Shown in pieces: positions 57,774 through 62,278 of a stretch of DNA of 64,000 nt. Position 1 is the first letter of the stretch. Each line of letters begins with the position of its first letter. The notes beneath the pieces were generated by a model that searched no databases, was not told where the DNA came from, and saw only the letters and a list, made by a program, of their open reading frames with translations. Origin of the DNA: Bacillus bingmayongensis (lineage in GTDB: Bacteria > Bacillota > Bacilli > Bacillales > Bacillaceae_G); contig NZ_JH921518.1 in the NCBI RefSeq assembly GCF_000299035.1, positions 904,439-968,438 of the forward strand. Direction: 5' to 3'. A program made the translations under genes and the position numbers.

Positions 57774-58985
57774 TCAGCTTAAACGCTCGATGCGCTTTGC
57801 ACCGTATTGATAAACAAAACCAACACTAAAAGCTATGCTAGCGGCGAATAAAATACAAGTCATGATGATATCTTTTGTTGCCAAAACAAATATGATTGTA
57901 AATACAATACTGCCTATACATAGAATTGCATTTAACAGGCGAAGAAAATCCTTTTTCTTTTCTTCTACAGTCACTGGATATAAATCAAGCCATAGTTTTA
58001 AACGATGGTGTTTCCAAAGGCTTAATAGTTGATAACCAATTAAGTATAGAAATACGATACTTACAATAAAACGACCATATAAAAATGGTATAAAGTAAAG
58101 AATGACCCCGCCAATGGCAAGTAAACGAATATATAAACCAAAATAGTTACCCGATCTTAAAAATGTACGGGTATATAGATATAAATATGTACGTTTTTCA
58201 CCAATCATGGAAAGTACAAAATCAAGCCATTTCCGGCGTGACACCCGTTCCTTTAACGCCGGTACATCGACAAACATGTTCGCAATGCGGTATAAAAGCA
58301 TCATTTTCTTGCCTTCTTCTGCAATTAAGTATTCCCAGTTTAACGGTTTTCCTTTTACCTTTTGATACATGAATGCGAGGTATATAACCATTACAAATAG
58401 AATTACTCCTATGTAAATCACCGAAGTGCGCCCTACAAGGAAGTAGACAAATAATCCGTTACATATAAAGCGAATGAACCAATCCGCGCGCTGCATACTT
58501 TGATCTGTTAAAAATGATTTTTCCCATGCTACAAATAAATTCCATGCTTTTACTAAAATAAGCGCGGCCACAATCCATATGTAAGTCCCTCCCGTTTGCT
58601 TCATTTGCTGGAAATATAGCGGAGCAAGTGCGGCCGCTGCAATTGCTATCACATACAGCTGAATCATAAACGTAAAGAGAAACGCTTTTGTAAAATACGG
58701 CTTTAATTTCTCTTCAACTGGAAGCAAATACACAAGATCCGCTTCTTTTAATAACGTTTGGATGGATCCTGCTGTTAATACAAGTCCAAGTAAAACCGCC
58801 ATAACAAGCGCGGCCGGAAATGAAGGAGTCAATGTTTGTAACCATTGCTGGTAATAATACGCACCGGCTCCAATAATAAATACGAAAATGAATTTTAAAT
58901 GATCGTTAAAAACATATTTACTATATGCACGAACTTCTTTTAAAAAATGCCTAAATCGTTCTTTCCACAATGCTCTGCTATTCAT
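57774..58985 (-). CDS. ecsB: ABC transporter permease EcsB
   Basis: 403 residues with about eight to ten membrane helices and a charged cytoplasmic loop, matching EcsB. It is the membrane subunit of the Ecs ABC transporter, with EcsA as ATPase; in B. subtilis the system affects secretion, competence and the RasP protease. The start overlaps the ecsA stop by 8 bp. Substrate unknown. Confidence 0.93.
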   Translation of the reverse strand: MNSRALWKERFRHFLKEVRAYSKYVFNDHLKFIFVFIIGAGAYYYQQWLQTLTPSFPAALVMAVLLGLVLTAGSIQTLLKEADLVYLLPVEEKLKPYFTKAFLFTFMIQLYVIAIAAAALAPLYFQQMKQTGGTYIWIVAALILVKAWNLFVAWEKSFLTDQSMQRADWFIRFICNGLFVYFLVGRTSVIYIGVILFVMVIYLAFMYQKVKGKPLNWEYLIAEEGKKMMLLYRIANMFVDVPALKERVSRRKWLDFVLSMIGEKRTYLYLYTRTFLRSGNYFGLYIRLLAIGGVILYFIPFLYGRFIVSIVFLYLIGYQLLSLWKHHRLKLWLDLYPVTVEEKKKDFLRLLNAILCIGSIVFTIIFVLATKDIIMTCILFAASIAFSVGFVYQYGAKRIERLS

Positions 58986-59721
58986 AATCTTCTTCCTTTG
59001 TTAATGCAATATAGATATCATCTAGCGTCGCTCCAGGCATATTAAATTGCGACTGCAACTCAGATAGTGTTCCCTTCGCCCGAACTTCACCTTGATGTAA
59101 AATAATGAAGGAATCACAGTAACGCTCTGCTGTCGCTAAAATATGGGTACTCATTAAAATACCGGCGCCACTCTTTTTCATTTTGTTCATCATTTGCAGT
59201 AGTGATTGAATCGCTAGCGGATCGAGCCCAACGAAAGGTTCATCCACAATATAAAGTGATGGTTCAACAAGGAAGGCACTCATAATCATTACTTTCTGTT
59301 TCATTCCTTTTGAAAAATGAGCTGGGAACCATTTTAAACGATTTGTCATTCGAAATTCCTTTAACAGCTGCTGCACACGTTCTTCATATTGTTTCTCATC
59401 TACACCATACGCCATCGCTGTTAACTTTAAATGTTCTTCTAAAGTTAACTCATCATATAATACAGGTGTTTCCGGAATAAATGAAAAGCTAGAGCGATAC
59501 GCTGTCATATCTTCTCGAATTGTTTTTCCGTTAATTGTTACAGTACCTTTTTTTGGTTCCATTAAACCGATAATATGTTTAATCGTTGTACTTTTACCTG
59601 CTCCATTTAAACCGATTAAGCCAACAAGCTCACCCTTATTAACAGAAAATGAAACATCTTGCAGCACCGGCCGCTTCGTATATCCTCCTGTGACATTTTC
59701 CACACGTAATAACTGTCCCAT
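58978..59721 (-). CDS. ecsA: ABC transporter ATP-binding protein EcsA
   Basis: 247 residues: Walker A GLNGAGKST (about 37-45), signature FSKGMKQKV (about 136), Walker B LYIVDEPF and switch His in STHIL. First gene of ecsABC. SD is GTGGTGTC-like (AAAGTGGTGTCAT before ATG), and the same GGTGTC string recurs in the region upstream (59955-60168). It powers the EcsB permease. Confidence 0.95.
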   Translation of the reverse strand: MGQLLRVENVTGGYTKRPVLQDVSFSVNKGELVGLIGLNGAGKSTTIKHIIGLMEPKKGTVTINGKTIREDMTAYRSSFSFIPETPVLYDELTLEEHLKLTAMAYGVDEKQYEERVQQLLKEFRMTNRLKWFPAHFSKGMKQKVMIMSAFLVEPSLYIVDEPFVGLDPLAIQSLLQMMNKMKKSGAGILMSTHILATAERYCDSFIILHQGEVRAKGTLSELQSQFNMPGATLDDIYIALTKEEDYE

Positions 59722-59954
59722 ATGACACCACTTTCTTCGTTATATTCATCCGCTTGTATAAGCGTATCTTTTATTAAAATGTATATATTCATCTTACCAA
59801 AAAATAAAAGATACTACATAGTACCGAATTTCTTCAAAAAAAAATAATTTCTTTACATATCTTTTACACAACGGGACATCATAATTAGTGAAGAAGGAAT
59901 ACATTGAAAAAGCAACCACCAAATTGATGAATACAACTAAGTAAAATCATCATG

Positions 59955-60245
59955 AAATGGGGTGTCCATAATGGACAAAGAAAATTTACACGAAACCAGA
60001 TAGTTTGTTTTATTTTAGAAACGGGGTGTCTCGAGGAGAGTATATACTGTTTTATAAAATAAACAATTTCATTTCATAAAGGATTGCAATATCATTTTAT
60101 TGTAAATGAGGTGTCTACGGCAGAATACTAGCCGAATTACCACACATTCCTAAATAAATGAGGTGTCTGTGAACGGTAGATTAAATTAAATGCTTTTTCA
60201 ATCCCTCTTCAGAAAACAGGAAGCTGAGTCAGCTTCCTGTTTTTC
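59955..60245 (+). ncRNA. Candidate RNA gene with four AAAYGRGGTGTCY motifs
   Basis: The 579-bp ecsA-hit gap holds four copies of a 13-bp motif at 59955-59967, 60019-60031, 60104-60116 and 60156-60168 (consensus AAAYGRGGTGTCY), followed by a 15-bp terminator stem at 60213-60244 with T5. This arrangement looks like a plus-strand transcript of about 300 nt ending before the hit promoter. Each motif could also act as SD plus GTG start for a very short ORF (MSIMDKENLHETR, MSTAEY and so on). No promoter is obvious (a TTTACA lies at 59852). Function unknown. Confidence 0.45.
60213..60245 (+). terminator. Strong terminator upstream of hit
   Basis: 15-bp perfect stem (60213-60227 with 60229-60243) and T-run; ends a transcript coming from the ecsA-hit intergenic region, since no annotated gene lies before it on this strand. 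Confidence 0.9.
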
Positions 60246-60249
60246 GTGT

Positions 60250-60277
60250 TTGTTCTCCTATGTAATTATGGTAAAAT
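60250..60277 (+). promoter_or_regulatory. Promoter of hit
   Basis: TTGTTC (60250-60255), 16-bp spacer, extended -10 TGGTAAAAT (60269-60277). Confidence 0.6.
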
Positions 60278-60309
60278 ACGGCTAAGACCTACTTGAAAGG
60301 ATGAGAACC

Positions 60310-60744
60310 ATGAATCATACAGCGGATAATTGTATTTTTTGTAAAATCATTGAGGGACAAATTCCTTGCTCAAAAGTATATGAAGATGAACATGTACTTG
60401 CATTTCTAGATATTAGCCAAGTGACAAAAGGACATACACTTGTAATTCCAAAAGTGCACAAACAAGATATCTTTGCTTTAACGCCAGAAATTGCATCACA
60501 TATATTTTCTGTCGTTCCTAAAATCTCAAATGCGATTAAATCTGAATTTAATCCAGTCGGCTTTAACCTATTAAATAACAACGGTGAAAAAGCTGGACAA
60601 ACTGTATTCCACTTCCACCTTCATTTAATTCCACGCTACGGTGAAAACGATGGTTTTGGTGCCGTTTGGAAATCACATCAAAATGAATATACGACGGAAA
60701 ATTTACAAAACATCGCAAGTACCATTGCAAATGGTGTAAAATAA
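60310..60744 (+). CDS. hit: HIT-family protein Hit
   Basis: 144 residues from ATG 60310 (SD AAAGGATGAG upstream; an in-frame ATG at 60301 lies inside the SD). Histidine triad HFHLHLIPR (about 96-104) and the N-terminal zinc-type C-F-C-K motif ADNCIFCKIIEG. It hydrolyses nucleotide phosphoramidates or related nucleotidyl bonds. It is next to ecsA divergently, as in B. subtilis. Confidence 0.94.
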   Translation: MNHTADNCIFCKIIEGQIPCSKVYEDEHVLAFLDISQVTKGHTLVIPKVHKQDIFALTPEIASHIFSVVPKISNAIKSEFNPVGFNLLNNNGEKAGQTVFHFHLHLIPRYGENDGFGAVWKSHQNEYTTENLQNIASTIANGVK

Positions 60745-60786
60745 GAGTAAGAATACGATTTATCATATGCTGGAACGTAAAATGTA

Positions 60787-60978
60787 CTATAGCAGCATAT
60801 AAAGTAAGATTGTACATAACAAGCCTACTCCTCCAAAAGACATATACTGCATGGCTTGTTTTTTCACCCAAAATGCTGGAGGATATGATCTTTTTTGTTT
60901 TACAAATAACAGTAAATGCATAGCACGTACAAGAAAGAAAAGACTTACGATAAAACAAATGGTTGTCACAAGTTTCAC
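60787..60978 (-). CDS. Small two-helix membrane protein
   Basis: 63 residues, GTG start at 60978 with SD GGGGGGAG four bases upstream. Two hydrophobic segments (about 3-25 and 45-62) linked by a basic loop KQKRSYPPAFWVKKQAMQYM. Convergent with hit. No family recognised. In B. subtilis trpP lies in this gap, but this protein is not TrpP-like. Confidence 0.65.
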   Translation of the reverse strand: MKLVTTICFIVSLFFLVRAMHLLLFVKQKRSYPPAFWVKKQAMQYMSFGGVGLLCTILLYMLL

Positions 60979-61058
60979 TTTTCTCCCCCCTTGTCTTAAG
61001 CATATGCATGTTTTTATACATCATGAATAAGAGCAAAAAAATAAGGAGGTTTCCTTTT

Positions 61059-61421
61059 ATGTCAAAAGCTAAATCCTTTGTAACAGGTGTAATTTGCGGC
61101 AGTGCTGTCGCTGGACTAGCCGTTCTTTTTTCCACTCCTTCTTCCGGTAAAGATATGCGGAGTAAACTAAAAGAAAAAGGAAATGATATTAAAAAGACTT
61201 TAGCTGATATTACAGCTGATACAAAATTATTAAAACGTCAAATTGTTGAAACGGCTTCAGAAGGTAAAGAAGTTTTTCAAGAATTGAAAGATGATATGCA
61301 AGATACACTTTCCACATGGAAACAAGATATTTCTCAAAACAAACGTCATATTGAACAAGAAATTTTAGACATTCAAAAATCAATTGAAAAATTGCAACAA
61401 ACAGTTCCAGAAAAAGCGTAA
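61059..61421 (+). CDS. yhaH: YtxH-domain protein YhaH
   Basis: 120 residues from ATG 61059 (SD AAGGAGG; in-frame upstream ATGs lack one). N-terminal membrane-like stretch FVTGVICGSAVAGLAVLFSTPSSGKDMRSKLKEKG (about 6-40), the YtxH/GasT-like motif, then a long coiled coil rich in K/E/D. General-stress-type protein, function unknown. Located between hit and hpr as in B. subtilis. The SD lies in a small AAGGA/TCCTT hairpin. Confidence 0.85.
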   Translation: MSKAKSFVTGVICGSAVAGLAVLFSTPSSGKDMRSKLKEKGNDIKKTLADITADTKLLKRQIVETASEGKEVFQELKDDMQDTLSTWKQDISQNKRHIEQEILDIQKSIEKLQQTVPEKA

Positions 61422-61482
61422 ACGATGTTCCATTCTTAGTTTTTGCATATAACAAATATTTTTTATAAATATTTCTCTTATC

Positions 61483-61514
61483 GCGACATATCACATAGAT
61501 ATGTCGTGTTTTTA
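61483..61514 (+). terminator. Terminator of yhaH
   Basis: CGACATATC (61485-61493) with GATATGTCG (61499-61507), followed by TGTTTTT. Confidence 0.88.
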
Positions 61515-61558: not shown

Positions 61559-61720
61559 ATATAGTTATGACATCTAAAACGCTTCCACAATTATGCATGA
61601 TCTGTTAAGATTATAATTTTTCCGAAAAATTTTCACAATTCTTACAAAAAGACTTTATTAATTTTTATTTTACTGGCATAATAGATACTAATGAATAAGA
61701 ATGTAAAAGTGGGTGAGTAC

Positions 61721-62278
61721 ATGAAAAGTGGAGAAAAAGATTATTCGGTCAAAGAAGCAATGATTTTCAGCCAACGCATTGCTCAATTATCGAAGGCATT
61801 ATGGAAATGTGTAGAAAAAGATTGGCAACAGTGGATCAAACCATATGATCTAAACATTAATGAGCACCATATTTTATCCATTGCTTATCATTTAAAAGGG
61901 GCTTCTATTTCTGAGATTGCAAAGTTTGGCGTGATGCACGTATCAACGGCATTTAACTTTTCGAAAAAACTTGAAGAGCGCGGCTATCTTGTATTCTCAA
62001 AAAAAGAAGATGATAAGCGAAATACGTATATTGAAATTACACCAAAAGGGGAAGAATTGCTGCTGCAATTAATGGAGGAGTATGACCCTGAAAATAATTC
62101 TGTCTTTAATGGCGCTCTTGCTCTTCGCAATTTTTATGGTAAGTTCCCAGAAAATATCGAATTAATCGCGATTTTAAGAAATATTTATGGACAAGATTTT
62201 ATCGATATTTTTGAGAAATCACTAGAAAATATTGAGGAAAATTTTACGGAACACGATCAAAAATTAGTTAAAAAATAA
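61721..62278 (+). CDS. hpr: MarR-family transition-state regulator Hpr (ScoC)
   Basis: 185 residues from ATG 61721 (SD-like GGGTGAG); an in-frame ATG at 61691 would add ten residues not seen in relatives. MarR winged helix: [80 protein letters not shown]. Hpr represses protease and peptide-uptake genes at the end of exponential growth in B. subtilis. Strongly conserved. Confidence 0.95.

What the first reader, a model, noticed from the sequence alone, without database searches (positions are those of the whole stretch)
59955..60245. Four AAAYGRGGTGTCY motifs plus a terminator between ecsA and hit
Seen: four 13-bp copies at 59955, 60019, 60104 and 60156 (spacings 64, 85 and 52 bp), one orientation, followed by a 15-bp terminator stem at 60213-60244, before the hit promoter. 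No gene on this strand explains the terminator. Inference: either a small RNA whose repeated GRGGUGUC segments bind other RNAs (they contain an SD-like core), or a cluster of very short ORFs, since each motif could serve as SD plus GTG start (for example MSIMDKENLHETR, 13 residues). The ecsA SD region also contains GTGGTGTC. I know of no described RNA with this pattern.
Basis: partly seen in the sequence, partly recalled or inferred. Interest (0 to 1): 0.72.

Follow-up and report, generated by a model that had tools for sequence, protein, structure and literature searches.

The report
Repeat-built forespore small RNA, S357 family
The four repeats and the terminator belong to a structured small RNA gene whose counterpart in another Bacillus is made inside the developing spore and affects spore resistance; what is new here is that the RNA is built from a repeated, ribosome-site-like module kept across many Bacillaceae genera.

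Summary
In detail: four AAAYGRGGTGTCY copies on one strand plus a strong terminator lie between divergent ecsA and hit. They are parts of an RNA gene of about 360 nt (about 59890-60250), very probably the ortholog of a described sRNA: S357/ncr1670 of B. subtilis and Bvs196 of B. velezensis, a forespore RNA under sigma-F/sigma-G in the same hinT-ecsA interval (passages of PMC9147052, PMC3574147, PMC4410918). Support: same interval and strand in 29 of 80 hit loci, a sigma-G-like promoter, a covarying 5'-3' closing helix, and a copy away from ecsA/hit in another genome. So 'small RNA' is right; 'no described RNA' is wrong for the locus, although the paper searched for it does not mention the repeat. 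New: the repeat is a 21-nt module (AAAYGRGGUGUYURUNRMAGR), up to six copies, no Rfam match; many genera add a second module, AAGGGGAUGGU-N4-UUG. Both resemble Shine-Dalgarno sites, and the frame after each closes early, without peptide conservation. What the modules bind is unknown; protein docking and ribosome contact lead.

The parts
59854..59859 (+). -35 box TACATA of a sigma-G-like promoter
   Evidence: across the family 26 of 44 non-redundant loci have this kind of box 17 or 18 nt before the -10 box, shuffles mean 1.9, max 7
59877..59883 (+). -10 box CATCATA (most often CATNMTA in the family)
59890..60250 (+). predicted S357/Bvs196-type RNA gene, about 360 nt (ends predicted, not mapped)
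   Evidence: promoter, fold z-scores, covariation, terminator, synteny
59890..59897 (+). 5' strand of the closing helix (GAAGAAGG), pairs with 60203-60210
59903..59914 (+). 5' strand of the second part of the closing helix, pairs with 60191-60202
59955..59975 (+). repeat module, copy 1
60019..60039 (+). repeat module, copy 2
60104..60124 (+). repeat module, copy 3 (upstream TCATTT can pair with AAATGA)
60156..60176 (+). repeat module, copy 4
60191..60210 (+). 3' strands of the closing helix
60212..60244 (+). intrinsic terminator, 15-pair stem
   Evidence: 8 of the 10 terminator pairs counted in alignment A2 do not vary over its 6 sequences
60301..60744 (+). flanking gene hit/hinT (HIT domain)

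Best explanation
This is the local ortholog of the forespore small RNA S357 (ncr1670, Bvs196): an independent gene of about 360 nt, transcribed away from ecsA by a sigma-G-type promoter (59854-59883) and ended by its own terminator (60212-60244). Shown here: gene anatomy, conservation, covariation, repeats. Inferred by homology: it is made in the forespore late in sporulation and acts in trans on forespore mRNAs, affecting spore resistance, as reported for Bvs196. The RNA is closed by pairing of its 5' and 3' ends and carries tandem copies of one 21-nt module (AAAYGRGGUG followed by a small hairpin with a five-base loop). Inferred, and weaker: the near-invariant module is a repeated docking site, while the variable stretches between modules do the target pairing. 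For what docks I give: an RNA-binding protein about 0.4; the 30S ribosome through the anti-Shine-Dalgarno about 0.3; a partner RNA about 0.15; none of these about 0.15.
For: Published ortholog in the same interval: Bvs196, 294 nt, between hinT and ecsA, forespore-specific, sigma-F/sigma-G; B. subtilis ncr1670, hinT-ecsA, enriched 2.77-fold with Hfq. Subtilis-group loci L017, L018, L022 carry the same modules there. 29 of 80 hit loci have 2 or more modules upstream of hit, 27 of these with ecsA divergent upstream in the fetched stretch; none of the 80 has 2 or more on the other strand of that stretch or in the stretch examined downstream of hit. ecsA-hit interval 439-1049 nt in those 27; 46-278 nt in 25 of the 31 loci with ecsA and fewer than 2 modules. 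Promoter 26 of 44 against shuffled mean 1.9. Six helices with the closing helix: 10 cells with changes on both sides against 4.4 in shuffles, 0 of 500. Core GRGGTG intact in 77 of 82 distinct 21-mers when two core mismatches were allowed. Module-1 pattern in 25 of 250 genomes of the class, reversed control in 1. A shorter copy away from ecsA/hit (L168).
Against: No transcript data for this organism. Neither the B. velezensis nor the B. subtilis 168 sequence was fetched; the link rests on synteny and on three other subtilis-group species. Loci named as Planococcaceae that I recall as spore formers lack it at this place, so it is not a universal sporulation RNA. 14 of 19 genomes of one family gave no match to the window DNA. 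The covariation rests on 6 sequences, two of them 92% identical, on a structure predicted from the same alignment; two measures are weak (further pair types 321 of 500 shuffles as high; pairs changed on both sides 14 of 500) and the RNAalifold covariation term was +0.23. Some single hits may be chance. No Rfam match at E up to 1 or at gathering in 15 relatives. The published binding regions in Bvs196 (nt 74-131 and 109-124) were not mapped onto the modules.
Confidence: 0.8

Rival explanations
1. Ribosome-engaging RNA: the modules are Shine-Dalgarno-like sites that hold 30S subunits; module 2 (AAGGGGAUGGU-N4-UUG, not seen in this window) starts very short reading frames whose translation, not whose peptide, matters.
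For: 94 distinct module-1 18-mers pair with the 16S tail (recalled) at -11.9 kcal/mol on average, shuffled mean -6.1, lowest 5% -11.4. With one member per cluster, the TTG frame exceeds 20 codons in 1.8% against 33% in Markov controls and 35% in frame 2 (24 clusters); the GTG frame in 13% against 37% in controls and 24% in each other frame (65 clusters). With TTG not imposed, the codon at +13 of module 2 is TTG 106, ATG 4, AAA 1 of 111 distinct sites, so the only exchange seen besides one variant is to another start codon. CsfG, another forespore RNA, is also rich in SD-like purine stretches (alignment).
Against: A full SD (G at -1, -18.3 kcal/mol) is absent in 144 of 144 copies; in the relaxed scan only the GGGATG variant has G there. 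Most bases of the cores are paired in the window fold. TTG is far commoner than ATG and GTG is not seen, unusual for start codons. No conserved start codon sits after module 1 (consensus). At the loosest clustering the frame signal vanishes. Module 2 was not found in this window.
Confidence: 0.27
2. A cluster of genes for very short peptides.
For: In-frame stops come early in the GTG and TTG frames.
Against: Substitutions fall evenly on codon positions 1/2/3 (102/122/114 for TTG frames, 94 pairs; 84/86/75 for GTG frames, 97 pairs; pairs not independent) and synonymous changes are 29 of 163, near the neutral expectation of 21%. At copy 1 the five relatives of alignment A2 share with the window only the module-coded beginning.
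Confidence: 0.04
3. Sponge for another RNA that is complementary to the modules.
For: Variable positions -1, +1 and +7 are nearly all Y or R transitions (exception: A at -1 in 4 of 144), compatible with one fixed partner through G-U pairs (+1 was limited to A or G by the search pattern).
Against: Exact complements beyond the gene's own antisense: 52 in 10 genomes, reversed control 51 (my recount). No CACCYC inside the six CsfG matches. Position +7 is also explained by the small hairpin.
Confidence: 0.12
4. Leader or attenuator of hit.
For: Same strand, the terminator ends about 57 nt before hit; the scan found no consensus promoter in that gap.
Against: A copy with promoter-like block and terminator lies downstream of an EamA transporter gene, with no hit or ecsA seen in the 2 kb fetched; many hit genes lack it; a TANAAT box sits before hit here and in L006, L092 and L095 (read).
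Confidence: 0.04

Closest known systems
S357 / ncr1670 (B. subtilis) and Bvs196 (B. velezensis)
   Same: Interval between hinT (hit) and ecsA, independent RNA with its own terminator, sigma-G-type promoter, stable conserved fold; subtilis-group relatives carry the same modules
   Different: About 360 nt predicted against 294 nt; two of four copies have GGGG; probably too distant for the BLASTN criterion of the paper (my inference); expression not measured here
CsfG (found here as Rfam RF00516, ylbH leader; that the two are one is recalled)
   Same: Forespore RNA under sigma-F/sigma-G (stated in PMC9147052), rich in purine SD-like stretches
   Different: Other locus, other sequence, no GRGGTGT in the six loci
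CsrA-titrating RNAs (recalled)
   Same: Many copies of a short purine-rich motif in a structured RNA
   Different: Module 1 lacks the GGA core (consensus recalled); module 2 has GGGGAUG but was not found here

Membership tests
S357/Bvs196 sRNA | Lies between hinT/hit and ecsA | tested here: met
   paper passages
S357/Bvs196 sRNA | Own sigma-F/sigma-G promoter | tested here: met
   Sequence only: TACATA-N17-CATCATA; sigma-G consensus recalled
S357/Bvs196 sRNA | Own rho-independent terminator | tested here: met
S357/Bvs196 sRNA | Shares sequence with subtilis-group loci of the same interval | tested here: met
   Modules in L017, L018, L022 and the promoter block in L017 and L018; the named strains' own sequences were not fetched
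S357/Bvs196 sRNA | Conserved, stable secondary structure | tested here: met
   the structure was not compared with the published one
S357/Bvs196 sRNA | Forespore-specific transcript of about 300 nt | not testable with these tools
   No expression data held
S357/Bvs196 sRNA | Binds spo0A and sspN-tlp mRNAs | not tested
   Reported for Bvs196 in vitro
CsfG (RF00516) | Match to the covariance model | tested here: not met
   No match in 59000-61500 at E up to 1; six of six ylbH loci match
Any Rfam 15 family | Match to a model | tested here: not met
CsrA-binding RNA | GGA core in the repeated motif | tested here: not met
   GRGGUG core; CsrA consensus recalled
Short-peptide gene cluster | Synonymous bias in the reading frames | tested here: not met

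The most novel reading that the evidence does not exclude
The S357 family is a modular RNA that parks or times ribosomes in the forespore: repeated near-Shine-Dalgarno modules, some without any usable start codon and some followed by a UUG (sometimes AUG) and a short frame that is kept closed, engage 30S subunits without making a conserved peptide, so that a compartment entering dormancy tunes its translation by RNA.
Probability: 0.22. Interest if true: 0.8.

Novelty: new member of a known kind. Interest (0 to 1): 0.5.

Why it matters
The paper searches made brought up one functional study of this RNA, in one species. Showing that it is a module-built RNA spread over many Bacillaceae genera, with a near-invariant 21-nt unit, a second unit in many of them and a second genomic copy in at least two genomes, gives a sharp handle: the unit can be changed or removed in a laboratory Bacillus and its partner sought. 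To my knowledge few forespore RNAs have a known molecular mechanism.

Tried and rejected
Rfam at a permissive threshold and at gathering on 15 relatives: nothing. CsfG as sister or partner: no shared module, no complement inside the match. Exact complement of the module in 10 genomes: 52 after removing the gene's own antisense, control 51. Coding peptides: no codon-position bias. hit leader: not favoured. DNA-binding repeats: not favoured, because strand, RNA fold and covariation point to RNA; not tested otherwise. The apparent pairing of positions +1 and +7 is probably shared descent. Upstream hairpin TCATTT/AAATGA: helix of 5 or more in 0.34 of 156 copies against 0.05 shuffled, so not general; of the window copies only copy 3 has it. 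Paper search on ribosome sponges and on cereus-group sRNAs: nothing on this RNA in the listings. PMC4634765: no mention of ecsA or S357.

Limits of the counts: several scans select copies by a pattern that fixes GRGGTG, so invariance there is partly circular; relaxes this. The promoter rows were found by a pattern for the -10 box and the purine block, so only the -35 box is a free test. Alignment A1 has 22 rows out of the 59 loci plus a few others, two rows identical (L024, L150); L010 and L144 are one place fetched twice. Searches dropped duplicates and sites too near a contig end, and searches took only sites with TTG; one search counts without that demand. One search read only the + strand and was redone. 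Short-ORF tests were made after seeing the first list; one search adds 31 sites not used before, many of them closely related.

Full report
What is there. The window has divergent ecsA (58978-59721, minus; ABC ATPase, next to an EcsB match) and hit (60301-60744, plus; HIT domain).

It is a gene. A scan for hit relatives gave 80 loci, the best 80 of more. In 58 of 80 ecsA lies divergently upstream within the fetched stretch. In 29 of 80 there are two or more modules upstream of hit on the hit strand; in none are there two or more on the opposite strand of that stretch or in the stretch examined downstream. The Ectobacillus funiculus locus has six copies. In the 27 loci with both, the interval (measured from the tblastn match) is 439-1049 nt. 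Of the 31 loci with ecsA and fewer than two modules, 25 have 46-278 nt; the other six are L012 and L035 (one copy each by this pattern), L040 (454 nt), and L027, L048 and L063 (over 1 kb). The 25 carry names such as Planococcus, Sporosarcina, Jeotgalibacillus, Halalkalibacter, Staphylococcus and Streptococcus. In a family search around the Ectobacillus genome, 5 of 19 genomes matched the window DNA and 14 did not.

Promoter. Aligning the block upstream of the RNA in 44 non-redundant loci on its -10 box, 26 of 44 have a [GA][ACT]AT[AG] box 17 or 18 nt upstream; shuffled mean 1.9, maximum 7. The -10 box (mostly CATNMTA) and the purine block GAAGGGGAA that follows were used to find the rows. This is the sigma-G form (consensus recalled). 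In the window it is TACATA-N17-CATCATA.

Structure. The window RNA folds far better than shuffles (z -7.95; -6.80 without the terminator). On an alignment with five relatives (A2; L093 and L095 are 92% identical), a structure taken from the RNAalifold result, with the 5'-3' closing helix, an upstream hairpin, a short helix at copy 1, the copy-1 hairpin and the terminator, has 92.8% of cells paired (shuffled 90.5), 10 cells with changes on both sides against 4.4 (0 of 500), 7 such pairs against 3.8 (14 of 500), and no excess of further pair types (16 against 15.8); versions slid by 1-3 columns have 37-53% of cells paired. The RNAalifold covariation term there was +0.23. On 22 rows from other loci (21 distinct) RNAalifold also found a 5'-3' helix (GAAGGGG with CCCCTTC) and the terminator; 8 of 27 pairs show compensatory change, 6 of them in the terminator and 2 in the 5'-3' helix.

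Module 1. Over 144 distinct copies from 59 loci the consensus is AAAYGRGGUGUYURUNRMAGR (the pattern fixed GRGGTG). Positions 6-8 can pair with 14-16 around a five-base loop; pair 8-14 covaries (z 4.7 against shuffles). Position -1 is U 132, C 8, A 4, G 0. With two mismatches allowed in the core, 77 of 82 distinct 21-mers keep GRGGTG; one of the five variants (GGGATG, preceded by G) is shared by three loci. The pattern, with one mismatch, is in 25 of 250 genomes drawn from the class, the reversed control in 1; several of the 25 have a single imperfect hit and may be chance.

Module 2. Many genera also carry AAGGGGAUGGUYRNNUUGNACAA (not found in this window); it is in 135 of 193 genomes of one family, with no hit of the reversed pattern. 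With the start triplet left free, +13 is TTG in 106, ATG in 4 and AAA in 1 of 111 distinct sites.

Short frames. From TTG, frames are 5-18 codons in 33 sites, 4-26 in 80 (these take in the sites), 6-19 in 31 further sites. With one member per cluster (24 clusters), frames over 20 codons are 1.8% against 33% in Markov controls and 35% in frame 2. From GTG of module 1 (65 clusters) they are 13% against 37%, and 24% in each other frame. At the loosest clustering only one to three clusters remain and the difference is lost. There is no sign of peptide selection. I read this as a hint of contact with ribosomes, not as genes for peptides.

Published counterpart. PMC9147052 (abstract, results sections 3.1-3.4 and found passages) reports Bvs196: 294 nt, between hinT and ecsA, forespore-specific, mainly sigma-G; deletion lowers heat and UV resistance and raises formaldehyde resistance; it binds spo0A and sspN-tlp mRNA in vitro. 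It calls the B. subtilis homolog S357 in the introduction and S547 in the discussion. PMC3574147 (one table passage) lists ncr1670, hinT-ecsA, 256 nt, 2.77-fold with Hfq; PMC4410918 (one passage) equates ncr1670 with S357. In PMC9147052 the strings cereus, anthracis, motif and Shine-Dalgarno have no occurrence. Other searches: (listings only; passages were seen in PMC12456014, and PMC8216469).

Second copies. In G129 and G133 the module-2 pattern also hits a second place; G035, G092 and G171 also have hits on two contigs or three hits, not resolved. L168 shows there a shorter version: a CATTATA box, the purine block, two modules 1, one module 2, a matching 3' strand and a terminator-like end, downstream of an EamA transporter gene. 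L167 has two modules 1 and one module 2. So the unit can stand on its own.

Mechanism. Shown: gene anatomy and conservation. By homology: forespore expression and action in trans. Open: what the modules hold. Against a simple sponge, most bases of the cores are predicted paired in the window RNA; against a plain ribosome site, a full Shine-Dalgarno match is absent from all 144 copies.

Noticed in passing
L168 about 820-1135, and L167 about 850-1100: Second, shorter copy of the RNA at a place without ecsA or hit in the 2 kb fetched; in L168 it follows an EamA transporter gene.
   Followed up: partly
L023, L019, L010 and many others, between ecsA and hit: Second module AAGGGGATGGT-N4-TTG with early in-frame stops, not found in this window.
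   Followed up: yes
G308, G339 and G414: One-mismatch hits of module 1 in large genomes, the same string in two genomes in two cases; may be a distant relative or chance.
   Followed up: no
window 59724-59731: GTGGTGTC in the start region of ecsA, on the minus strand, resembles the module core.
   Followed up: no
window 61691-62278 and 61059-61421: Gene for the Hpr regulator (NF010349, E 1.2e-103) and a YtxH-like protein, downstream of hit.
   Followed up: no
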